Positions 9,760-32,128 of a stretch of DNA of 37,687 nt are shown one piece after another (positions within the stretch are counted from its first letter, which is position 1; each line of letters begins with the position of its first letter). The notes under the pieces are model-generated. The model was not told the origin of the DNA. It made no database searches and saw nothing but the letters and a program-made list of their open reading frames with translations. The translations under genes and the position numbers were made by a program. This DNA comes from a virus: IMG/VR virus record IMGVR_UViG_3300032116_000593, positions 1 to 37,687 of that record; one strand, written 5' to 3'.

Positions 9760-11052
9760 TTAATATGAGTTAAAGCTTGAAAGATCGACTGTAGAGATAG
9801 TGTGTGAATCGCCCCAAGCCGTAATTTGGTTTTTGATTTGTTGTATGATTGAATAATATGGATATTCATCTTGATGTCTTATTAGGCAGTATCCGAATTC
9901 TGGACCAGTGTGATTTGATAAAAATACAGCACTGCCATTGATAATGAGATAAATTGGACTACCAGAGTCTCCAGCTACGGCTGATGGGGCATATTGAGAA
10001 TAAGACGCATAAGCAGTTGAACTTTTTTGATAAAAAGAATCATCTCTATTAATAGATATCAATCTCAATCTAGCTACATTGTTTTGATCTATCCATACTG
10101 CTGGTATACTCAAATCTCCATCTCCACTAACGCAATTGCAATTATCACCAATTCTTTGATTTGGAAAGTATGAAGAAAAATTACTTGGTAGTATCTTGGC
10201 TGGAGATATCACACTAGGAACATCTGATGACAATCTTATCAATCTTTTATCTCCAGAGATACTATTGCTAACATTGACTACAGTTCCTATGTAGATTGGT
10301 TCTTTTTGATTGGTAGCCGCAGATTTTTCAGCAAAATGTATTTGAGATCCAACAGATGGAAAATAATTTGAATGTGATGTGAATATCATATGTTTTCTTG
10401 TCAATAAGCACCCTCCCATTCCAAATCCACCGCTAGTATTCCATACTCCCTTGCTAGTAAAATCAATATCATTTACCCAGCAATTAGAATTTCTTATATA
10501 TTCCTGAGTAGCAGGATTTTGAGTAGAAAAAATTGGAAGAGATGGATTGTTATTTAATCTGCTAAGAATTTGAACTAAATGTTGAGCCAAAGATCCTGTT
10601 GCATAATTAGTAAATGAATAAGCATAAGAACTATTTGTTGAAAAAGATTGTACGTTTAGTATTCTTTTGACACCTAAACTATTCGTTGCCACTATTTTAG
10701 CCATACCATCTGATACATAATTACAAACCCATAAGGTATCAGAGGTCTTTACTAAACTTATTGATGAGGAATCTGTAGTAAGGCTTATAGTAGATGCGGT
10801 GTTATTTATGTTTTTTTCTGTAATATTCAACAAATATTTACTTTTAAATGAAGCAGATGCTTTATAGGAATAAACCCTATCTTTAAAAGTCTGCGAACCC
10901 GAACTATTTCCAGCTAACTCTACGAGATCACTTGTTATATCAATATTATATGGAATTTCTGATATTTTTGTCTTGTTAAATCTACGAGAATTGAAATTCG
11001 TAGTTGGTGATCCACAATTAATTGGATAATTTTTTGCTGGTAATAAAGTCAT
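9760..11052 (-). CDS. Trypsin-fold serine protease, module copy A
   Basis: 430 residues. The N-terminal 180 form a Ser/Thr-rich, beta-like region beginning AKNYPINCGS; the C-terminal part is a chymotrypsin-fold domain. The triad can be placed by comparison with the paralogue at 11754: His227 (MIFTSHS), Asp268 (SGDKRLIRL) and Ser363 (AGDSGSPIY). No signal peptide. The end (VDLSSFNSY) also matches the paralogue. It overlaps the fibre gene by four bases, so fibre and protease are translationally paired. Likely a virion-associated protease acting on host surface or virion proteins; that role is inferred. Confidence 0.78.
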   Translation of the reverse strand: MTLLPAKNYPINCGSPTTNFNSRRFNKTKISEIPYNIDITSDLVELAGNSSGSQTFKDRVYSYKASASFKSKYLLNITEKNINNTASTISLTTDSSSISLVKTSDTLWVCNYVSDGMAKIVATNSLGVKRILNVQSFSTNSSYAYSFTNYATGSLAQHLVQILSRLNNNPSLPIFSTQNPATQEYIRNSNCWVNDIDFTSKGVWNTSGGFGMGGCLLTRKHMIFTSHSNYFPSVGSQIHFAEKSAATNQKEPIYIGTVVNVSNSISGDKRLIRLSSDVPSVISPAKILPSNFSSYFPNQRIGDNCNCVSGDGDLSIPAVWIDQNNVARLRLISINRDDSFYQKSSTAYASYSQYAPSAVAGDSGSPIYLIINGSAVFLSNHTGPEFGYCLIRHQDEYPYYSIIQQIKNQITAWGDSHTISTVDLSSFNSY

Positions 11053-11753: not shown

Positions 11754-12962
11754 CTAATAAGAAGTAAAAGAGGATAAGGATATTTCTGTTAATTGATATC
11801 CACCACCAAGCTGTTGCATCATTTGATTTATTGCATCTTTTTGTAATGACGTAAAACTTCCAGATCCTCCTATTCCCCAAGTTGTTACAAATATAAGCAC
11901 TAGTTCGTTGTTTATCAATAGAAATGCTGGACTACCAGAATCGCCAGCATATAATTCTCTAAAAAATGGTCTACGTATAGAAGTTAATTCTTGACCTATA
12001 CATTTTGCTATAGAAGATAATTGGTATAAGTTTGTTATACTAATATATTCTGACTGATCTATTATTATAACTGGTATTTCTATTCCACGTTTAATACTTG
12101 GTAGATATTTTCCAAAGTCAATTGGAAGAATTTTTGTAAATGAAATAGTATTTGGAAGATCTGAATCTAACAAAGCAATTTGTATGTCATTTGACTTACT
12201 TGTAGAATTATAATTTGGGTGAGTAATAACACCTGTGATAGTTCTAGTTATTGATACATTATTATTTGTTACAAATCTTATAGTTGATCCACTTGCAATA
12301 GGATAGTGGGCAGCAAACATTACATGCCTAGGGCTTATCAAAACGCCTGCCCTATTTGTTATTCCGTAGGAATTCCATGGGCTGATGCATGTAAAATCAA
12401 CATTTTTAAATACAAAAGAAGAATTTCTAGTGTAAATATTATTTGCATGATTTTGAATAGAGTATACTTGCTGTGAAGAGGTTGGTGATATTCCAGATAT
12501 TTTTAAGTCTACTTGATCTGTTATATGACTTGATAAACTATTATTCACAAAAGACAAAAAGGTATCTTGATTTGATGTACTACCAATTGGAGAATATTGT
12601 ATATTGATATTAACATATTGATTAGATCCATCATCAAAAGATAGTTCTAGTGTATCATTCCCTACTGATATTCCAGAACATTGCAGATTATTAATAAGAA
12701 CATTATTTGAATAGCTTTTTATAGATATTATTTTTTTATTAGATGATTCAAAGATAAAATCTCTGATTCCAGATGAACTAGATACTCTATATATATTTGT
12801 ATCTTTGTCAACTATAGAACCCGAAGATGATGGCGAAATGGGCCTAAAATAACTATTGTATTCCAACTTTGAAGATAAATTGGGTTTACTAAATGTCCAA
12901 GATGGAGGATTATTAGTAGATCCACAGTTTATCGGAACGCCTTTTGCTTGTAAAATAGACAT
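11754..12962 (-). CDS. Trypsin-fold serine protease, module copy B
   Basis: 402 residues from the ATG at 12962, just after the stop of the upstream fibre gene; an in-frame TTG at 12983 is the alternative. Triad: His219 (SPRHVMFAAHY), Asp259 (SNDIQIALLD) and Ser342 (AGDSGSPAF). The N-terminal region starts AKGVPINCGS and the C-terminus ends ISLSSFTSY, both matching copy A at 9760, so the two are tandem paralogues. The preceding 190 residues are beta-like and low in charge, as in virion proteins. No signal peptide, consistent with delivery on the particle. Confidence 0.8.
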   Translation of the reverse strand: MSILQAKGVPINCGSTNNPPSWTFSKPNLSSKLEYNSYFRPISPSSSGSIVDKDTNIYRVSSSSGIRDFIFESSNKKIISIKSYSNNVLINNLQCSGISVGNDTLELSFDDGSNQYVNINIQYSPIGSTSNQDTFLSFVNNSLSSHITDQVDLKISGISPTSSQQVYSIQNHANNIYTRNSSFVFKNVDFTCISPWNSYGITNRAGVLISPRHVMFAAHYPIASGSTIRFVTNNNVSITRTITGVITHPNYNSTSKSNDIQIALLDSDLPNTISFTKILPIDFGKYLPSIKRGIEIPVIIIDQSEYISITNLYQLSSIAKCIGQELTSIRRPFFRELYAGDSGSPAFLLINNELVLIFVTTWGIGGSGSFTSLQKDAINQMMQQLGGGYQLTEISLSSFTSY

Positions 12963-12963
12963 A

Positions 12964-14292
12964 TTATGTAGTTGTTGTATCAACGATGTAGTTTTTGGCA
13001 GTTGCTATACTAGTATTATGTGTGCTAATACCCGGATTCCCATATACATAAATAGTTTTTGATGTTGCCGCCGTTGGTAAAAGATTGTAAATATTATTTA
13101 ACTGTGCCGCTGAAAATTGACAATTCTTGAATGAAAAATTTCCATATGAATTGTTAAAATTTATTTGAGAAAGATTTGTACATCCATCTAAAACAAATGT
13201 ATTAGATGATATGATTGATGGAGAAAAAGTAATTGATTGAAGTGATGTTGAATTTGTCAAGTCTAAGTTATTTATCTTGTTATTACTAAAGTTTAAAGAT
13301 GTTGTTTTTGCATTCGTAAATACTAACCAAGCTAAATTAATATTGCTAGATAAATCTATAGAAGACAGATTACTATCACCAATGAACAAACTTGATAAGT
13401 TAATGCAATTTTTAAGATTTAGTTTTGATAATGATGAATTGGAACTAAGATATGCTGTTGTTAAACCAGAAGCATTAGAAAAGTCTGCCCATTGTAGATT
13501 ACTATTTGCGTTTACATTGCAGTATTTTGCCGTTGGACTTTTAATCCATTCTAAATTTGGTAATAAATTTGCAGTAATATCTACTCCGCTCACGTTATTT
13601 TTTAAGTGAATATACTTCAAAGTATCATCACTATTAATAGATACGCCTGTTAAGGATGTCATTTCTTCAAAGTTAATCTCAAAATTTTTAGAACTAGCAC
13701 TACTGGAAAAGTTTATTATGTTACCAGACTGAGCAGCATTACCAGATGAGCAACTCCAATAGTACAATTCTTTTATTGAATTTTTAGCATATATTCCCGT
13801 ATTCGAAGCATTAAGGGTAATTGAGGCTGTTATAGAACTGTTTGGATTTCCATTTCCAAAAACTCTAACATCACCACTTGGTGTTTGTACAGCTAAATAT
13901 CCAGTTGATGTATTAAATGTTGCTGAGTGTGATGATGAACTACTATTGCTTTTTATTCTCATCATGCCACTGGGAATACATAATGGGCTTGGATATATTG
14001 GGCCAGTGTATACTGGATATCCACCTTGAGTATATCCATCTCCTATGTATAGATTAGATTTATTTGTAGAAAATACCGGTTCACCAAGAGAAGGAATGAC
14101 TGATAATAATTCAGATTCAAGCCCCTGTCTGAGCTGTAATGCCGCTGGCTGGCTTAATAAAGAATTTCTTAGTAAACTTGCAGATATTCTTTTTGTTATG
14201 GCATTGCCATTTGGGTCATCTAATATCAGCAATAAATCATCGTCAGTAACAGATGATCCAGACGGTAATTGATTAATTCTTACTATACCCAT
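12964..14292 (-). CDS. Tail-fibre-like protein with leucine-rich repeats, module copy B
   Basis: 442 residues. Residues 1-90 repeat the attachment domain of copy A (INQLPSGSSVTDDDLLLILD; LQLRQGLESEL; SNLYIGDG). From about residue 200 onward there is a leucine-rich repeat run with a period of roughly 20-22 residues, for example NLSSLFIGDSNLSSIDLSSN then NLAWLVFTNAKTTSLNFSNN. The C-terminus is Thr-rich. LRR domains bind proteins or glycans, so this could be the receptor-binding end. The downstream protease starts two bases beyond its stop. Confidence 0.78.
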   Translation of the reverse strand: MGIVRINQLPSGSSVTDDDLLLILDDPNGNAITKRISASLLRNSLLSQPAALQLRQGLESELLSVIPSLGEPVFSTNKSNLYIGDGYTQGGYPVYTGPIYPSPLCIPSGMMRIKSNSSSSSHSATFNTSTGYLAVQTPSGDVRVFGNGNPNSSITASITLNASNTGIYAKNSIKELYYWSCSSGNAAQSGNIINFSSSASSKNFEINFEEMTSLTGVSINSDDTLKYIHLKNNVSGVDITANLLPNLEWIKSPTAKYCNVNANSNLQWADFSNASGLTTAYLSSNSSLSKLNLKNCINLSSLFIGDSNLSSIDLSSNINLAWLVFTNAKTTSLNFSNNKINNLDLTNSTSLQSITFSPSIISSNTFVLDGCTNLSQINFNNSYGNFSFKNCQFSAAQLNNIYNLLPTAATSKTIYVYGNPGISTHNTSIATAKNYIVDTTTT

Positions 14293-19446: not shown

Positions 19447-20003
19447 ACATTATATCCTATATTGTTATATTTGAAAAAGAACCATCTCTTTAATCTCTTA
19501 ACGTCTGCTTCTACGTTAACATCATCAAGGTAGCTTATTATTTCGCCAAGGGATCCAAAGATATGTTCATGCGGTAACATAAAAAATAACCAATTAGGGG
19601 CATTCTTTTTACCCTGCTGGCACCACACTAAGACGGGTTTCTTTTGACGATTAGCAGTGACTATTTCTTCGTATGTACCACATGCATGTACCTCTAAATC
19701 TATATGTGCAATTATAAAATCAGATACGTCAACACATCTCAAATCAGCACTTCTTATAATGCTAAATTTTTCTTTTATCTTGTCGTATTGTCCGGTTTCT
19801 TTATAATGCTCTATCCAATGTCTTGTTTCTTCATCTTCTACAACTCCATTGATTGGCTTATTACATGGATCAATAACGATTATTCCCATTTTTTGGAGAA
19901 TCCCAGTAATTCTCTGTCTCCATCCTATACCTCCATCGGGAACTCTGTCCATAGCACCAACAAGATAAGTTCTCATTCCGGTTAAATTATTTGTTGAATC
20001 CAT
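19443..20003 (-). CDS. Nucleoside 2-deoxyribosyltransferase-like protein
   Basis: 186 residues. The fold signature is visible: TYLVGAMD with WRQRITGILQKMG near the start, SADLRCVDVSDFIIAHID at mid-length and HACGTYEEIVTANRQKKPVL, where the Glu after GTY is the usual catalytic residue. Such enzymes exchange bases on deoxyribonucleosides or cleave deoxyribonucleotides. Some family members serve DNA modification or signalling, so the substrate is uncertain. It overlaps genes on both sides in the sigma-factor operon. Confidence 0.75.
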   Translation of the reverse strand: MDSTNNLTGMRTYLVGAMDRVPDGGIGWRQRITGILQKMGIIVIDPCNKPINGVVEDEETRHWIEHYKETGQYDKIKEKFSIIRSADLRCVDVSDFIIAHIDLEVHACGTYEEIVTANRQKKPVLVWCQQGKKNAPNWLFFMLPHEHIFGSLGEIISYLDDVNVEADVKRLKRWFFFKYNNIGYNV

Positions 20004-20394
20004 TGTCTATACTCCACCAAATTTTGTTTATTCCAAGAGATTGTATGATGCGTTCACATCTTTCGCAAGGTTGACTACGCCTTAATTCTCCACGCTTGTT
20101 CAGTCTAATAATCACCATTTTTAAACTGCTATCTATATAGTGCTTTCCCCACAGTCTAGATATCAAATCTGTTTCGGCATGAAAATAAGGGTATTCAAGA
20201 TCTGTATTAAATCTTTTTGCTAACATTAATGCTTGGGTATGAGTTTTCTCTGGATTATTTTGACCAATAGCAAGAAGCTTATTCTTCTTATATCCAAACG
20301 CAAAATGAAAAAATTTGTTCTTGGTATTACGTTCTTCTTTTGCCTTTGGAAGTAAACTAATAGCTATATCCAATGATTGATCTAATATATTCAT
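19987..20394 (-). CDS. Cytidine/deoxycytidylate deaminase-superfamily protein
   Basis: 135 residues. Zinc-site motifs of the CDA fold are present: FHAETDLISRL (His and catalytic Glu) and SQPCERCERII (two Cys ligands), followed by LGINKIWWSID. It differs from the canonical dCMP deaminase at 22039, so the phage has two deaminases. HAE instead of HGE is seen in several branches (CDA, TadA-like, RibD-like). The substrate could be a nucleotide or a base in nucleic acid. It lies between the deoxyribosyltransferase and a membrane protein gene. Confidence 0.75.
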   Translation of the reverse strand: MNILDQSLDIAISLLPKAKEERNTKNKFFHFAFGYKKNKLLAIGQNNPEKTHTQALMLAKRFNTDLEYPYFHAETDLISRLWGKHYIDSSLKMVIIRLNKRGELRRSQPCERCERIIQSLGINKIWWSIDNGFNK

Positions 20395-21835: not shown

Positions 21836-22042
21836 TTATGGTTTTTGTTCATATGTTATATAATCTAAGACTTGTGTATGAGTCCAACTGATCTGATAAT
21901 TATCATCAGTGGCAAGTCTAGCTATATCAATATATTCCATTTCTAACTTAACTATTAGTTCTGCTAAAAATTCAAGTTTATTTGAGTAGATGCATTCTTC
22001 TATTAAATCCAAAGTTTCTTTTACTGTTCTTTTATTTGTCAT
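21836..22042 (-). CDS. Small helical hypothetical protein
   Basis: 68 residues, helical and acidic (TLDLIEECIYSNKLEFLAEL), ending ILDYITYEQKP-like with no known motif. It overlaps the dCMP deaminase gene by four bases (ATGA), so it is probably translated with it. Confidence 0.6.
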   Translation of the reverse strand: MTNKRTVKETLDLIEECIYSNKLEFLAELIVKLEMEYIDIARLATDDNYQISWTHTQVLDYITYEQKP

Positions 22043-22485
22043 TTTGGATCGTATTCTATTAATTCTGTCTTTGCTTGTTCAAAAAGCCAGCGAGACAATA
22101 TAAAATCTTTTTCCCATCTATCTATTGAGTTTTTGTATGATACTACCCTAGTAATTCCAGATTGTATTATCATACTAGAACATCTTGGACATGGAATAAA
22201 TGGGTAAGTATATAAAGTACAGCCTACAAGAGATCTGTTTGCAAATAATATAGCATTCATTTCTCCATGCACTATCATATTATACTTAGTTTCTCTATTA
22301 TTTAACATCTCTGGAAAATCATGAATATTTTTTGGGAATCCATTATATCCAATAGATACTATTCTATTGTCACGATCTGTAATAACTGCACCAACTTTAG
22401 TAGAGGGATCTTTAGACCAGCTAGAAATAAACTCTGATAAATCCAGAAATCTATAATCCCACTTTGTATAGTCTATAATTCCCAT
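22039..22485 (-). CDS. dCMP deaminase
   Basis: 148 residues of the zinc-dependent deoxycytidylate deaminase family. Zinc and catalytic residues are His73 and Glu75 (VHGEMNAIL), Cys99 and Cys102 (IPCPRCSSMI); the N-terminal STKVGAVITDRDNRIVSIGY is also typical. It converts dCMP to dUMP, which ThyX then methylates, so it shifts pools from C toward T in an AT-rich phage. Its start overlaps the methyltransferase-like gene by 13 bases. Confidence 0.92.
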   Translation of the reverse strand: MGIIDYTKWDYRFLDLSEFISSWSKDPSTKVGAVITDRDNRIVSIGYNGFPKNIHDFPEMLNNRETKYNMIVHGEMNAILFANRSLVGCTLYTYPFIPCPRCSSMIIQSGITRVVSYKNSIDRWEKDFILSRWLFEQAKTELIEYDPK

Positions 22486-23033
22486 ACTATTTGATATCCA
22501 TCAAAAATTGGATTTATTCCTATGTTAGACATGAATTGTTTTACATATGTGCCTTTACCAGAACCATTATCAAAGTTGTCATCTACGGCTACTATAGTAC
22601 CTTTAGTACATGAAGGCCATATACATAATAGTTCCATTATATGGTGCATAGAAGATGGATGTGGATCATTATGGTCAAAATCAAATGAATCTAAATATAA
22701 TAAGTCTACATATTTATTTTCATCTCTTAATTCTTTATTTTTGTTGAACAAATAAGATACAGAATCTGAACATATTAAATTGATATTTTTAGTAATCATC
22801 TTTGCTAAATTAATATTATTAGGATTTATATCAATTGAATAGCACTCGCCACCATTTTGTTCAATATATTTATCAAAAATTACGGTGGACATTCCAGCAC
22901 CAAAATCATTTAATTGTCTTACGCATCCCGTTTCAATAATCAGTGGATTATTTTTTTTTGATAATTTATCTATCATTATCTCAAATGAGGGCTTGCGTAC
23001 ACCGTTGTTATCTAATAGTTCTTGTAAATTCAT
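22473..23033 (-). CDS. Class I SAM-dependent methyltransferase-like protein
   Basis: 186 residues with a Rossmann-type methyltransferase pattern: NNPLIIETGCVRQLNDFGAG (motif I region), ECYSIDINPNNINLAKM (acidic residue after strand 2), NLICSDSVSYL and VDLLYLDSFDFDH (motif IV-like). It resembles small Methyltransf_24-type proteins often found beside glycosyltransferases. The substrate is unknown. The start overlaps the guaC stop as TAATG, so the two are translationally coupled. Confidence 0.75.
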   Translation of the reverse strand: MNLQELLDNNGVRKPSFEIMIDKLSKKNNPLIIETGCVRQLNDFGAGMSTVIFDKYIEQNGGECYSIDINPNNINLAKMITKNINLICSDSVSYLFNKNKELRDENKYVDLLYLDSFDFDHNDPHPSSMHHIMELLCIWPSCTKGTIVAVDDNFDNGSGKGTYVKQFMSNIGINPIFDGYQIVWEL

Positions 23034-24076
23034 TATATACTCCTATCAAAATGAACTCTATTTACATGTATAAATTCTGCACATTTTGGCAAATCTTTTA
23101 AATTATCAGCACCAACATAAGCACAAGCACTGCGTATACCACCTAAAATATCATCTATAATGTCTAGAGCTTCTCCTTTATATTCTATCGTTTTTACGCG
23201 ACCTTCGCTTGCTCTATATTCTTTAATACCACCATATTTTTCTTGTGCGGCATGTGAACTCATGCCGTAAAACTTTAAAACTTTTTTACCATCTATTTCG
23301 CTCCATTCACCTTCGCACTGTGCTGTACCAGCCAGCATACCACCGATCATAACGAAATCGGCACCGGCGGCAAATGCCTTTACAACGTCTGATGGTGTTC
23401 TACAGCCCCCATCAGCACAAATCAATCCTAGTCTCCTGTCACCATTTTTTAACCCATGTGCTGCATGAGAGCATTCTGCTATTGCAGATAGCTGTGGATA
23501 TCCAACGCCAGTTTTTAGTCTAGTAGTACAGGCAGAACCGGGACCAATGCCAACTTTTACAATATCCACCCCTCCATGCAAAATTAATTCATGAACCATC
23601 TCTGGTGTGCAAACATTGCCAGCCATTATAATAGCGTCATTACCACAATACTCTCTTATTTTTCTACAACGCTCTACAAAATTTTCTGTATAACCATTAG
23701 CCACATCGATACATATATTTGGTGTTGCGTTGAACGATGTCATAAAAGAATTTAATTTGTTCAACTCTGAATCTTGTATACCCATACTATACCAAAAGTA
23801 ATCTAAATTTTTGACACCAAGCAAATAATCAGTATTGTGATAGTGTTTGTGTAGACATGTAATACAATTTCTCCTAGATAGAGATTCTGCCATAGCCATA
23901 GTGCCAGTTGTATCCATATTTGCAGCAATTATAGGAGTTCCATCCCACCGCAAATTTGAATGAAAAAATCTAAATGATCTTTTTACATCGACCAAGGACC
24001 GTGATGCTGCTCGGGATCTTTGTGGAACGAGTAATACATCATCAAAGTCTAACTTAACATCATTAACAATTTTCAT
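23033..24076 (-). CDS. guaC: GMP reductase
   Basis: 347 residues from the ATG at 24076, which has GGAGA five bases upstream; an ATG 12 bases earlier has no site. The catalytic loop [20 protein letters not shown] (Cys183) and [24 protein letters not shown] and [14 protein letters not shown] follow bacterial GuaC closely; no CBS domains interrupt it, unlike most IMP dehydrogenases. GuaC reduces GMP to IMP with NADPH, recovering purines for adenine nucleotides. A phage copy would shift supply toward A, in keeping with AT-rich DNA. It follows a terminator by only 13 bases. Confidence 0.93.
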
Positions 24077-24089
24077 ATATATCTCCATG

Positions 24090-25031: not shown

Positions 25032-27149
25032 TTACATGAGGTTAAGAACATTCTGAGCGTGGAGTCCACGTTCAATAGAATCAATATAATCTGCCACAAT
25101 CTTTCTATCAGTGTCACTCCAAACACTACCAAGAAGCCTGAGAACAGGATACTTAGTCATTTCAGAATCAAATTGTTTGCTGAAACGATGGTCAGGCTTG
25201 TTTTCGCTAAGATCAACACTGTTAACTCCGGGGAAAATCTTAGAAAATTCATGAATGATTCTCATATCATTAGACATAGCTTCAATCTTAGATGAATATT
25301 CCTTATGTTCAAAATAAACCTTCTTAGCGAGATTATCAGTCTGAGTAATCTTGAGTGTATCAATCCACCTAATGTTGTGTAGAGACAGCGGCACAGATCG
25401 GAAAACATCTTTGATATTATTCTTGTTAGCTTCCACTGCAATATTAAATACATTGGTAAGAACAGTCTCTCCGCTGAACCAGTTATCACGCTCATCAAGC
25501 TTCCTATTCTTAATGACAGAAGGCTTAACAAGATAAAATGTAGCATCACCAATCATATCTGGATACTTCTCATATGCAAAGGCAATAGCATTAGCAAGAT
25601 AACCTTCATCAACAGATCTATATCCGACGCTAACATCACCCTTTGATTCTGAGAAGTAATGTGCATTTTCGTACTTGACGCTCATATTACAAATTTCAAA
25701 CTTCCCAGTTTCAACATTAAATACTTTGGCTTGAATGGCGGGACCGCCACCAACGCCACTAGAGGTACGATTATACTCAACCTTATCAAGCATAGAGGTT
25801 GGGATAATGTCACTGATCGTGGCATCGCCCATAACACTGAGAAAATGGCAGTTATCAAGAGTCTCACCATCACGAAGTTTATAAATGTAATGGACTTGAT
25901 GACCGTTCTGCTCTTTCATATACTGACGAATTCGACTAACGCCACCACGCGGTAGATTGTCAACAAAGAATTTGGTTTTCTCTTGAAAAACCATACGTTC
26001 TACGCTTTGCTTAATATCAATTTTGGAACGATAAGCAGACTTTTCTGCACAATTGATTTCAATCAAATTCTTGACATTAATATATTCCCCCGCAATGCTA
26101 TCAAAAATCTTGTGATCATTCCAAGAGATAGACTTTTGGAGTGATTCAACTGCTGATCGAATAGACGAACATTGATTGCTAATCTGGACATACTTCATAC
26201 GGGCTTTGAACAGCGACGTTTGATTAGCGATTTGCTCCTCAATCTTAGTTGTAATATCATCAGCAATATCATTGATAATACCCATAATATTCTTACGGGT
26301 ATCTTTACTGTACGAGAGTGCTTCTCGACTAGGAGTAATATCAACATCTCCAATATTCACAAAAATACGCAAGCCGCTGGAGTACTCAATAAACTTATGC
26401 TCTTTATCAGTATTCTGACACAGTTGATTTGCAGTGAGAGGATATGCAATTTGACCCATAATAATCAGATTATCATCAGCATCAGCATCATAATACCAAT
26501 TATCTCCAGCAAGAACCTTATTAACCTTCTTGAAGGAAATAGATTGACCAATGAAGTTAGGCTTCGTATTAAAAAATTCATAGACCTTGACCGCTTCATG
26601 GTAGAAACGATGAATATCGTACTCGTTAACGTTAATAGAAACCTTGATACCATTAGCTTCATTGGTATCAAAAGTATCCATCAAAGAAAAAACTGGATTA
26701 CCATCCTCATCCTTGAAAGCATTATAAACACGACGCTGACCATCAAGGTAAGCTTCAACAGTGAAACTATCAGAATATGCGAACGGAGCCTTGCTACCAA
26801 GACCAAGGCAACCAACAGCATCATTGCTATTGTTTCGCGTACTACGGAAATACGTAGTATAAAGCTGCATACAGTCTTCATGATTCATGCTAGTGCCATA
26901 ATCGCGAATAAAGAAAGTAGGCTCAAGTCGAGTGGGAATATGCACATCAAATGGCACATCCTTCCTACCAGCCTCTACGTGAGAATCGTAAGCGTTAGTA
27001 GAAAGCTCACGAACAACTGCAAGAATTTTGTTAGAATAAAGACCGTCAGAAAGAATAAAGAAAGCCTTGGAAGAAGCCTCAATGCTAAACTTGGACTCTT
27101 CAAACTGACCAGACTTCTCAACAGTGTGTGTACCGGCATGAAGTTTCAT
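25032..27149 (-). CDS. rIIA: RIIA-like protein with GHKL ATPase domain
   Basis: 705 residues. An N-terminal GHKL (Hsp90/histidine-kinase/MutL) fold is visible: VVRELSTNAYDSHVEAGR (N box, metal-binding Asn), FFIRDYGTSMNHEDC (G1-type Asp) and VGCLGLGSKAPFAYSDSF (G2 loop). The long C-terminal part is RIIA-like. T4 RIIA is a membrane-associated protein acting with RIIB. A strong promoter and AGGAG precede the ATG. The DNA looks less AT-rich and regular in codon choice compared with the small early genes, which also leaves long antisense open frames. Confidence 0.9.
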   Translation of the reverse strand: MKLHAGTHTVEKSGQFEESKFSIEASSKAFFILSDGLYSNKILAVVRELSTNAYDSHVEAGRKDVPFDVHIPTRLEPTFFIRDYGTSMNHEDCMQLYTTYFRSTRNNSNDAVGCLGLGSKAPFAYSDSFTVEAYLDGQRRVYNAFKDEDGNPVFSLMDTFDTNEANGIKVSINVNEYDIHRFYHEAVKVYEFFNTKPNFIGQSISFKKVNKVLAGDNWYYDADADDNLIIMGQIAYPLTANQLCQNTDKEHKFIEYSSGLRIFVNIGDVDITPSREALSYSKDTRKNIMGIINDIADDITTKIEEQIANQTSLFKARMKYVQISNQCSSIRSAVESLQKSISWNDHKIFDSIAGEYINVKNLIEINCAEKSAYRSKIDIKQSVERMVFQEKTKFFVDNLPRGGVSRIRQYMKEQNGHQVHYIYKLRDGETLDNCHFLSVMGDATISDIIPTSMLDKVEYNRTSSGVGGGPAIQAKVFNVETGKFEICNMSVKYENAHYFSESKGDVSVGYRSVDEGYLANAIAFAYEKYPDMIGDATFYLVKPSVIKNRKLDERDNWFSGETVLTNVFNIAVEANKNNIKDVFRSVPLSLHNIRWIDTLKITQTDNLAKKVYFEHKEYSSKIEAMSNDMRIIHEFSKIFPGVNSVDLSENKPDHRFSKQFDSEMTKYPVLRLLGSVWSDTDRKIVADYIDSIERGLHAQNVLNLM

Positions 27150-29213: not shown

Positions 29214-29248
29214 AGAGGGCAGGCTTTTTAGTCTGCTCTCTTTTTTTT
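29214..29248 (+). terminator. Rho-independent terminator after the forward gene
   Basis: A 12-bp stem (29214-29225 with 29230-29241, two G-U pairs) closes a TTTT loop and runs into eight T. It overlaps the last codons of the convergent protease gene on the minus strand; on that strand no U tract follows the hairpin. Confidence 0.88.
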
Positions 29249-29995
29249 CATGTTTTCTCGTATCCATTCTACAAACTTACTTACTCTCGTATGACCACCA
29301 TCATCATTATACGTTGAGTTAGGCTTCTTGTCAATGGCTGTAACGCAAGAATTTATACCAGCCAGCCTGTTATCAATAAATAATCCTCCACCGCTATCAC
29401 CGCTTCCAATTAAAAATTCTAGTTCTGTTTTATCGGAAACTGAAGGTGTGCATATCAACAAATCATTTTCTATCCTGTCTATTCTATTTAATCCCGCTCT
29501 TCGTTTTCCATCGCCCCCTTTTATTCCACTGATAAATGTGCCTGTTTGGCCATACCCAGAAATAGAACATATTTGATCTAGTTCTTGATTTTGGACGTAT
29601 AATTCTGGATAGGATTTAATATCTATATCAGACTTCACATAGCATAATGCTATATCTGAAAATCCAAATCGTTTTTCTTCAAAGTCTTCGTGACAAATTA
29701 TTTCTTCAATTAATATAGCTTTTTTCTTGTTTTCATCGTATAAAAATGCGAATCTTGCTCCATCAACGACATGTGCAGCAGTTAATGCCCAGTGAGGATC
29801 TATTGCAACAGCAGAGGCGGAAAATGTTTGTTTATTTTTTTCATAAGATCCCATGATTTCTAAAACACAATCAAATTTCTCACCATATTCAACATATTTT
29901 TCGTCTGGAGTATTGGGATCTATAGTTCCAGATATAGCACTATTCCCTAAAAATAAAAGAAAAGAAAGTAGTAGGTTTTTGAGTAAAATTTTCAT
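29228..29995 (-). CDS. Exported trypsin-like serine protease
   Basis: 255 residues. A Sec signal peptide is seen (MKILLKNLLLSFLLFLGNSA, cleavage near residue 20-23). The S1 triad is complete: His75 (WALTAAHVVDG), Asp114 (FSDIALCYV) and Ser201 (GSGDSGGGLF). Unlike the two fibre-linked proteases, this one should be secreted to the periplasm by the infected cell. It could modify envelope or incoming phage proteins, for example in exclusion or lysis; this is speculation. It overlaps the HNH gene and contains a sigma70-like promoter near its 3' end. Confidence 0.88.
   Translation of the reverse strand: MKILLKNLLLSFLLFLGNSAISGTIDPNTPDEKYVEYGEKFDCVLEIMGSYEKNKQTFSASAVAIDPHWALTAAHVVDGARFAFLYDENKKKAILIEEIICHEDFEEKRFGFSDIALCYVKSDIDIKSYPELYVQNQELDQICSISGYGQTGTFISGIKGGDGKRRAGLNRIDRIENDLLICTPSVSDKTELEFLIGSGDSGGGLFIDNRLAGINSCVTAIDKKPNSTYNDDGGHTRVSKFVEWIRENMKKKRAD
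29306..29334 (-). promoter_or_regulatory. Consensus sigma70 promoter inside the protease gene
   Basis: The minus strand has TTGACA, a 17-base spacer and TATAAT, a full match to the consensus. The start point would lie near the end of the protease gene, so the transcript would cross the forward gene (28811) in antisense and enter the 28392-27241 thyX unit, which otherwise lacks an obvious promoter. Confidence 0.6.
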
Positions 29996-31293: not shown

Positions 31294-31380
31294 CGGAGCA
31301 AATAGGATTCGAACCTATGGACCAAATTAATGATCGTCGGTTTAGTAAACCGGTGCATTAGACCGCTCTGCCATTGCTCC
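31294..31380 (-). tRNA. tRNA-Ser with anticodon ACU
   Basis: A full type II tRNA. The 7-bp acceptor stem is GGAGCAA / TTGCTCC, the discriminator is G (usual for serine), the T arm is ATAGGTTCGAATCCTAT and there is a long variable arm. The anticodon loop is TTACTAA, giving anticodon ACU for serine codon AGU, with T33 and A37 as expected. The usual anticodon is GCU; A at position 34 is abnormal in bacteria for this tRNA. The base pair 27-43 is C-A. CCA is not encoded. It lies 20 bases from the tmRNA gene and was probably cut from the same transcript. Confidence 0.88.
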
Positions 31381-31399
31381 AAAATTTAGCATTGTTAAG

Positions 31400-31750
31400 T
31401 GGAGGCGGGCAGAGTCGAACTGCCGTCCAGAATAATTTCAATATAAACCTCTACATCCTTAGTTAATTGTTATCGTACAACTAACAAAACTAACAGAATT
31501 ATCTGTGTCAGATTGAGTACAATCATCATTCCTATTTATGTTTGGTAGGACTACCATATCCGATTATCGGAGTCAGCATGATTGGGCAATACGGTTCATG
31601 CACCGCACTCTTACCTAACTAGGTCAGGCAGCGAGAGCGAGAGTCGAAACTTCGCCAATTAACATTTCAATCGACTTTTATACTGGCCGGTCGATTAACC
31701 AGTGGATGCCATCTATATTTACGTTTACCTGTCGAAACCTTTACGCCCCC
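31400..31750 (-). ncRNA. ssrA: tmRNA (transfer-messenger RNA)
   Basis: 351 bases with the full tRNA-like domain: 5' GGGGGCG pairs with 3' CGCCTCC, GGTTTCGACAGG is the typical 5' D-region, and the T arm is GGCAG TTCGACT CTGCC. Downstream of the 5' end a pseudoknot PK1 can form (ACTGG/CCAGT and AATCGAC/GTCGATT). Twelve bases later a resume codon GGC opens a ten-codon tag, Gly-Glu-Val-Ser-Thr-Leu-Ala-Leu-Ala-Ala, stop TGA (31624-31656). The ALAA end is the usual protease-recognition signal. tmRNA with SmpB rescues stalled ribosomes and tags the product. CCA is not encoded. The 5' end abuts the thioredoxin stop codon. Confidence 0.95.
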
Positions 31751-32092
31751 TTATTTTAGGAAGTTTGTTAAATCATTTGGTCCTTGATAACCAATCTTTC
31801 TTCGTAATTCTTTTCCGCCCTCGTAAATCACAAAAGCGGGGATCGTCTTTATATTGTACCCATCAACTATGTCTTTGTCAACATCAAAATCTACGTCTAC
31901 GATGGTATAATTTTTCACAATCTCTGACAATTGTGGATCATTTTTCATATTATTTTTAGCTATTTGACAGTACTTGCACCAATCCGCTGAAAATATAATT
32001 AGTACTTTTTCGTTAGTATTGTCAAAAGCAAAAACCGATGCGATAGATATCAAACATGAAATCAAAAGGACAGAAACTAGTGTATTTCTCAT
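31751..32092 (-). CDS. Exported thioredoxin-like protein
   Basis: 113 residues from the ATG at 32092 with GGAGG upstream; a TTG 15 bases earlier is rejected. A signal peptide (MRNTLVSVLLISCLISIASV) precedes a thioredoxin fold with LIIFSADWCKYCQIAKNNM (redox CxxC) and the cis-Pro loop IKTIPAFVIYEGG, followed by LRRKIGYQG. It should act in the periplasm as a thiol reductant or oxidant, perhaps for cysteine-bearing phage envelope proteins. Its stop codon touches the tmRNA 5' end. Confidence 0.88.
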   Translation of the reverse strand: MRNTLVSVLLISCLISIASVFAFDNTNEKVLIIFSADWCKYCQIAKNNMKNDPQLSEIVKNYTIVDVDFDVDKDIVDGYNIKTIPAFVIYEGGKELRRKIGYQGPNDLTNFLK

Positions 32093-32128
32093 GCTAAAAC
32101 CCTCCAAATGGCTAATAATATATTCTAC

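What the first reader, a model, noticed from the sequence alone, without database searches (positions are those of the whole stretch)
31294..31380. tRNA-Ser with A at the wobble position (anticodon ACU)
The serine identity marks (long variable arm, G discriminator) are clear, and the loop TTACTAA equals the usual serine GCU loop except G34 to A34. Bacterial tRNAs avoid A34 except in tRNA-Arg(ACG). If deaminated to inosine it would also read AGA (Arg), so either it stays unmodified and reads mainly AGU, or it makes controlled misreading. A second deaminase-fold protein (19987-20394) with an HAE motif is encoded in the same genome.
Basis: partly seen in the sequence, partly recalled or inferred. 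Interest (0 to 1): 0.6.

Follow-up and report, generated by a model that had tools for sequence, protein, structure and literature searches.

The report
Phage serine tRNA with ACU anticodon
This phage carries a real serine tRNA whose anticodon starts with A instead of the usual G; the same oddity recurs in over a hundred uncultured phage contigs, and it most likely lets the tRNA read only the serine codon AGU, without touching the arginine codon AGA.

Summary
A well-formed tRNA-Ser with anticodon ACU lies at 31294-31380 (-), called by ARAGORN and Rfam. It is not a sequencing error. Three related phage contigs (rIIA-like protein 96, 93 and 65% identical) carry Ser(ACU), one with a strongly diverged tRNA body. 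In an unbiased scan, 22 of 120 phage Ser(RCU) genes were ACU, against 0 of 142 in sampled Bacteroidota genomes (scan centre excluded) and about 4 of 63 in Patescibacteria. In these phages A34 is nearly confined to this tRNA: Asn, Asp, Tyr, Cys and His tRNAs all keep G34.

Most likely A34 stays unmodified and the tRNA is an AGU-only serine tRNA. A published E. coli experiment (PMC11066159) found that an ACU tRNA is not deaminated by TadA, reads AGU, and does not detectably read AGC or AGA. Neither deaminase-fold protein in the window matches TadA, and none of 14 other ACU phage records has TadA. AGA aligns with arginine, not serine, in relatives. Controlled misreading is therefore disfavoured. 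Why phages prefer A34 here is open. A tmRNA gene (tag GEVSTLALAA) lies 16 nt upstream and was missed by ARAGORN.

The parts
31294..31380 (-). tRNA-Ser(ACU) gene, no encoded CCA
   Evidence: ARAGORN, Rfam RF00005 53.7 bits, cloverleaf pairs
31344..31346 (-). anticodon ACU (A34 C35 U36) inside loop TTACTAA 31342-31348
   Evidence: direct reading; invariant in related contigs
31320..31335 (-). long variable arm of serine type, 5 bp stem with 6 nt loop
   Evidence: pairs; fold
31294..31294 (-). discriminator G73, serine identity mark
   Evidence: direct reading; G in 48 of 53 distinct ACU phage tRNAs
31397..31750 (-). one-piece tmRNA gene, 16 nt upstream of the tRNA, same strand; a neighbour, not shown to be functionally linked
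   Evidence: Rfam RF00023 107 bits, E 4e-41; also in the three related contigs; not called by ARAGORN in the window
31624..31656 (-). tmRNA tag reading frame GEVSTLALAA*
   Evidence: translation; related contig L343 has tag GETQLALAA* by ARAGORN
   Evidence: Pfam PF00383 E 9e-4, 19.5 bits against cut-off 25; nothing in NCBIfam, PHROGs or PDB; phage homologues annotated hypothetical or dCMP deaminase
22039..22485 (-). dCMP deaminase
   Evidence: PHROG 174 E 7e-43; PDB dCMP deaminases; TadA model only 16 bits against cut-off 150

Best explanation
It is a functional phage serine tRNA whose wobble A34 most likely stays an unmodified adenosine. It should be charged by the host seryl-tRNA synthetase (inferred from the long variable arm and G73) and should read the serine codon AGU by a Watson-Crick A-U pair. 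It leaves AGC to the host's Ser(GCU) and AGA to Arg tRNAs. It is thus an AGU-specialised serine tRNA. Shown here: the gene, its structure, its conservation with A34, its recurrence in many phages, and the standard meaning of AGA. Taken from a published experiment with a different tRNA body: no TadA action and AGU-only reading. Inferred: expression, charging and decoding in this phage. The selective reason for G34 to A34 is not settled.
For: Cloverleaf intact; among 53 distinct same-length ACU phage tRNAs 99.1% of pair cells are standard (38-53% when slid), 20 of 25 pairs show compensatory changes and 48 of 53 keep G73. A34 is kept in three related contigs, including one whose tRNA body is strongly diverged. 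There are 113 ACU tRNAs in the 120 matched IMG/VR stretches; in an unbiased scan 22 of 120 are ACU, against 0 of 142 in Bacteroidota (Fisher 1e-8). A34 is nearly specific to this tRNA: in the same loci Asn 0 of 50, Asp 0 of 19, Tyr 0 of 17, Cys 0 of 17. In E. coli an ACU orthogonal tRNA is not inosinated, reads AGU at 9.4%, with AGC and AGA below detection and AGG at 0.36% (PMC11066159). No TadA in the two deaminase-fold window proteins or in 14 ACU phage records. AGA equals Arg: of AGA codons aligned to L343, 60 face AGR, 16 face CGN, 14 face Lys, and no serine group is among the leading partners. ACU phages give AGY a larger share of serine codons after GC correction (t about 3 on cluster means).
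Against: The AGU:AGC ratio is not shifted in ACU phages relative to other NNU:NNC pairs (t 0.6 per locus, about 1 to 1.8 on cluster means), so no adaptation to an AGU-only reader is visible. The window phage is itself not enriched in AGY (34% of serine codons) and uses AGA freely (55% of arginine codons). The E. coli data used an archaeal tyrosine tRNA body, and TadA of the unknown host may differ. No expression data exist.
Confidence: 0.66

Rival explanations
1. A34 is a disguise: the G34 to A34 change keeps the phage tRNA from being cut or inactivated by a host anticodon nuclease that recognises tRNA-Ser(GCU), while AGU reading is retained. The decoding is as in the best explanation; only the reason for A34 differs.
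For: Phage tRNAs with anticodon-loop changes that evade tRNA-targeting defences have been proposed from comparative data (PMC10264068). A34 is concentrated in one tRNA species and much commoner in phages than in Bacteroidota chromosomes, as an arms race would give.
Against: No nuclease specific for Ser(GCU) was found in the searched papers: VapC10 cuts Ser(GGA) and Ser(UGA) but not the tRNA from serV (PMC10945364), and mycobacteriophages keep tRNA-Ser(gct), described as not targeted (PMC10264068). The rest of the loop, TTxCTAA, matches the usual one. Some bacteria carry Ser(ACU) in their own chromosomes.
Confidence: 0.2
2. A34 is deaminated to inosine by the host's TadA or a phage deaminase, and the tRNA reads AGU, AGC and some AGA, giving controlled serine-for-arginine misreading.
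For: The loop holds U33-A34-C35, shared with the TadA substrate Arg(ACG). Some cellular genomes with Ser(ACU) also have TadA (12 of 48 above the cut-off). In one clustering ACU phages use less AGA than expected (t -4.1; t -1.25 in the other).
Against: ACU is not modified by E. coli TadA and does not detectably read AGC or AGA (PMC11066159). No TadA in 14 ACU phage records. Small Patescibacteria with Ser(ACU) mostly lack any TadA match. AGA aligns with arginine in relatives, and this phage does not avoid AGA.
Confidence: 0.06
3. A34 is nearly neutral: a G to A drift in AT-rich phage tRNAs, tolerated because host Ser(GCU) covers AGC and no enzyme acts on ACU.
For: ACU phages are AT-richer (mean GC 0.37 against 0.42); AGU:AGC use is not shifted; several origins are needed on the tRNA tree (19 changes among 187 phage tRNAs).
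Against: The same phages keep G34 in Asn, Asp, Tyr, Cys and His tRNAs, so a general drift does not explain it. A34 persists in relatives whose tRNA body has changed at many positions.
Confidence: 0.22
4. Sequencing or assembly error, or an inactive tRNA relic.
For: None found; reads were not available.
Against: Independent contigs with identical or diverged tRNAs all have A34, and pairing is conserved.
Confidence: 0.01

Closest known systems
Bacterial and phage tRNA-Ser(GCU), for example Pectobacterium phage Bobbio (L122)
   Same: Serine-type long variable arm, same anticodon loop apart from position 34, same AGY codon box
   Different: G34 reads AGU and AGC; here A34, expected to read AGU only; the Bobbio gene has G34
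Engineered orthogonal ACU tRNA in E. coli (PMC11066159)
   Same: Same anticodon, U33 and split codon box; unmodified A34; AGU-specific
   Different: Engineered Methanocaldococcus tyrosine tRNA, not a natural serine tRNA; rest of the tRNA differs
Unmodified A34 tRNAs of Mollicutes (Thr AGU) and TadA-less bacteria (PMC3711424; cited in PMC11066159)
   Same: Natural bacterial-type tRNAs with a genuine A34
   Different: Those read four-codon boxes; here the box is split between serine and arginine, where loose reading would be harmful
tRNA-Arg(ACG) and tRNA-Leu(AAG) with inosine made by TadA (PMC13249217)
   Same: A34 encoded in the gene
   Different: Those are TadA substrates in four-codon boxes; ACU is not a substrate in E. 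coli
Phage tRNAs with anticodon-loop changes proposed to evade nucleases (PMC10264068)
   Same: Phage tRNA with a changed anticodon-loop base
   Different: No nuclease against Ser(GCU) is known from the papers searched; the change is in the anticodon itself
Chromosomal tRNA-Ser(ACU) of Patescibacteria MAGs
   Same: Same anticodon and loop TTACTAA
   Different: Different tRNA bodies, usually next to a Ser(GCU) gene, in genomes mostly without TadA

Membership tests
serine tRNA (type II, AGY box) | Cloverleaf with long variable arm | tested here: met
serine tRNA (type II, AGY box) | G73 discriminator | tested here: met
   Position 31294
serine tRNA (type II, AGY box) | Charged with serine | not testable with these tools
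   Needs aminoacylation assay
tRNA-Ser(GCU) | G34 | tested here: not met
   A34 in window and relatives
TadA-modified (inosine-34) tRNA | ACG-type anticodon recognised by TadA | tested here: not met
   U36 not G36 (sequence); ACU not modified in E. coli (PMC11066159)
TadA-modified (inosine-34) tRNA | Inosine at position 34 in RNA | not testable with these tools
   Needs tRNA sequencing
TadA (protein 19987-20394) | Score above the TadA model cut-off | tested here: not met
   No NCBIfam match
TadA (protein 22039-22485) | Score above the TadA model cut-off | tested here: not met
   16.3 bits against 150; dCMP deaminase PHROG 174 instead
nuclease-evading phage tRNA | Insensitive to a host nuclease that cuts the host counterpart | not testable with these tools
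   Host and nuclease unknown

The most novel reading that the evidence does not exclude
A large share (about one fifth by motif) of AGY-reading serine tRNAs in uncultured phages carry a naturally unmodified A34 in a split codon box. This would be a phage-selected, AGU-only isoacceptor that also escapes a still unknown host system recognising tRNA-Ser(GCU).
Probability: 0.2. Interest if true: 0.75.

Novelty: new variant of a known kind. Interest (0 to 1): 0.5.

Why it matters
Unmodified A34 tRNAs are described as exceedingly rare (PMC11066159), yet one particular kind turns out to be common in metagenomic phages and recurs in some Patescibacteria and PVC bacteria. It gives a natural test of how A34 decodes in a split box, of why bacteria avoid it, and of what drives phages to keep their own tRNAs. 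In the papers searched I found no description of Ser(ACU) in phages.

Tried and rejected
Reassignment or ambiguity of AGA: rejected, AGA columns align with Arg and Lys codons of relatives and not with serine. A second deaminase as tRNA editor: rejected on sequence models, though the 19987-20394 protein stays without a firm family. Adaptation of AGU:AGC ratio in ACU phages: not found. Special pairing with tRNA-Arg(UCU): not found, 38 of 113 ACU loci against 31 of 89 GCU loci. ACU restricted to hosts without TadA: rejected, several cellular genomes have both, though small Patescibacteria fit it. ACU in isolate phages: the best BLAST matches to two ACU anticodon arms were Ser(UGA) or Ser(GCU) in the six records checked; the test is insensitive. 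A known nuclease against Ser(GCU): none found. Host of this phage: not determined; protein relatives are broad T4-like and cyanophage-like matches below 60% identity. Paper searches for the literal name returned no phage or bacterial paper.

Full report
The gene. On the minus strand, 31380 to 31294, ARAGORN finds tRNA-Ser(act) as the only tRNA of the window, and Rfam confirms a tRNA with 53.7 bits. Every arm can be read: acceptor stem 7 of 7 pairs, D stem 3 of 3, anticodon stem 4 of 5 (C.A at the base), variable arm 5 of 5, T stem 5 of 5, G73. The loop is U32 U33 A34 C35 U36 A37 A38. Aligned with the Ser(GCU) tRNA of phage Bobbio, the loops fall in register and differ only at position 34. Single-strand folding alone prefers another shape for the D and anticodon region, which is common for unmodified tRNA sequences (own knowledge) and does not weigh against the comparative evidence.

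Not an error. Three IMG/VR contigs encode close to moderate relatives of the rIIA-like protein 25032-27149 (96, 93 and 65% identity). All three contigs carry Ser(ACU) (L341/L080, L342, L029). In the most distant one the acceptor stem, T stem and variable arm have changed, yet TTACTAA is intact. Among 53 distinct same-length ACU tRNAs, 99.1% of pair cells are standard, against 38-53% when the 3' side is slid by 1 or 2, and 20 of 25 pairs show compensatory changes. These behave as working tRNA genes under selection.

How common. Scanning for either base at position 34 gave 120 stretches: 98 GCU and 22 ACU. With the same two patterns, 247 Bacteroidota genomes gave 142 with GCU and 1 with ACU; the single ACU is the genome used as centre, whose ACU lies on a phage-like contig with a tRNA identical to one in a viral contig. 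In 145 Patescibacteria genomes 59 had GCU and 5 ACU, one of the five being the centre. Phage against Bacteroidota: Fisher p 1e-8; against Patescibacteria p 0.03. The motif fixes the T arm, so these are ratios for one sequence class, not for all serine tRNAs. On a tree of 294 tRNAs with position 34 masked, A and G among phage tRNAs need at least 19 changes, far fewer than chance but more than one origin (few columns, so weakly resolved).

Specificity. In the ACU loci other tRNAs for two-codon boxes keep G34: Asn 50 of 50, Asp 19 of 19, Tyr 17 of 17, Cys 17 of 17, His 5 of 5 (Phe: one A34, one G34). So it is not general loss of G34.

Decoding. I looked for evidence that AGA is read as serine. 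Window AGA codons aligned with the 65% relative face AGA/AGG 60 times, CGN 16 times and Lys 14 times, and no serine group is among the leading partners. A published in vivo study made an ACU tRNA in E. coli: position 34 was not inosinated, AGU was reassigned at 9.4%, AGC and AGA were below detection and AGG was 0.36% (PMC11066159). I therefore take A34 to remain adenosine and the tRNA to be specific for AGU. The steps from gene to charged, unmodified, AGU-reading tRNA in the real host are inferred.

Deaminases. The window has two deaminase-fold proteins. 22039-22485 is a dCMP deaminase (PHROG 174, E 7e-43; PDB dCMP deaminases). 19987-20394 has HAE and PCxxC motifs but only a sub-threshold Pfam match, and its homologues in other phages are annotated hypothetical or dCMP deaminase. 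Neither matches TadA at a meaningful score. Among 48 ACU-bearing MAGs, 12 have TadA above the cut-off; the small Patescibacteria among them have none above it and mostly no match at all. Fourteen ACU phage records have none above it; many of those records are fragments.

Codon use. Comparing 65 ACU with 53 GCU loci, AGU:AGC follows the genome's other NNU:NNC pairs in both. AGY is a larger share of serine codons in ACU phages (t about 3 on cluster means), and AGA a smaller share of arginine codons in one clustering but not clearly in the other. The window phage shows neither trend. I regard these as weak and possibly clade effects.

Surroundings. Sixteen nucleotides upstream, on the same strand, lies a complete one-piece tmRNA (Rfam 107 bits) with tag GEVSTLALAA, conserved in the three relatives (GETQLALAA in L343). 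ARAGORN did not report it in the window. tmRNA was called in 15 of 113 ACU loci and 5 of 89 GCU loci (p 0.1), so no link with A34 is shown.

Verdict. The surprising part is not this one gene but that A34 is so frequent in this single tRNA species in uncultured phages. Its cause remains open between near-neutral tolerance, AGU supply and evasion of a host enzyme.

Noticed in passing
31397-31750 (-): A phage-encoded one-piece tmRNA with tag GEVSTLALAA, missed by ARAGORN in the window, conserved with tag GETQLALAA in a 65% relative (L343).
   Followed up: partly
L126, L130, L131, L144, L188, L231 and other Patescibacteria loci: Chromosomal tRNA-Ser(ACU), often beside Ser(GCU), in small genomes that mostly lack TadA and show Arg(GCG) rather than Arg(ACG) in the loci seen.
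   Followed up: partly
L125, L183, L193: Ser(ACU) among ordinary cellular genes in Verrucomicrobia, Planctomycetes and Firestonebacteria MAGs that also have TadA above the cut-off.
   Followed up: partly
L127, L161, L178, L230: An identical Ser(ACU) tRNA in MAGs named Planctomycetaceae, Chitinophaga, Phycisphaerales and Phycisphaera, which suggests mis-named bins of one lineage.
   Followed up: no
19987-20394 (-): Remote deaminase-fold protein with HAE and PCxxC motifs, found mainly in Aeromonas phages, substrate unknown.
   Followed up: partly
31751-32107 (-): Thioredoxin-domain protein with a hydrophobic N-terminus (by eye) directly upstream of the tmRNA gene.
   Followed up: no
23033-24088 (-): IMP dehydrogenase/GMP reductase family protein encoded by the phage (Pfam E 1e-65).
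   Followed up: no
9760-11052, 11754-12983, 29228-29995 (-): Three proteins that look by eye like trypsin-type serine proteases in one phage; only the last was tested (weak PHROG protease match).
   Followed up: no
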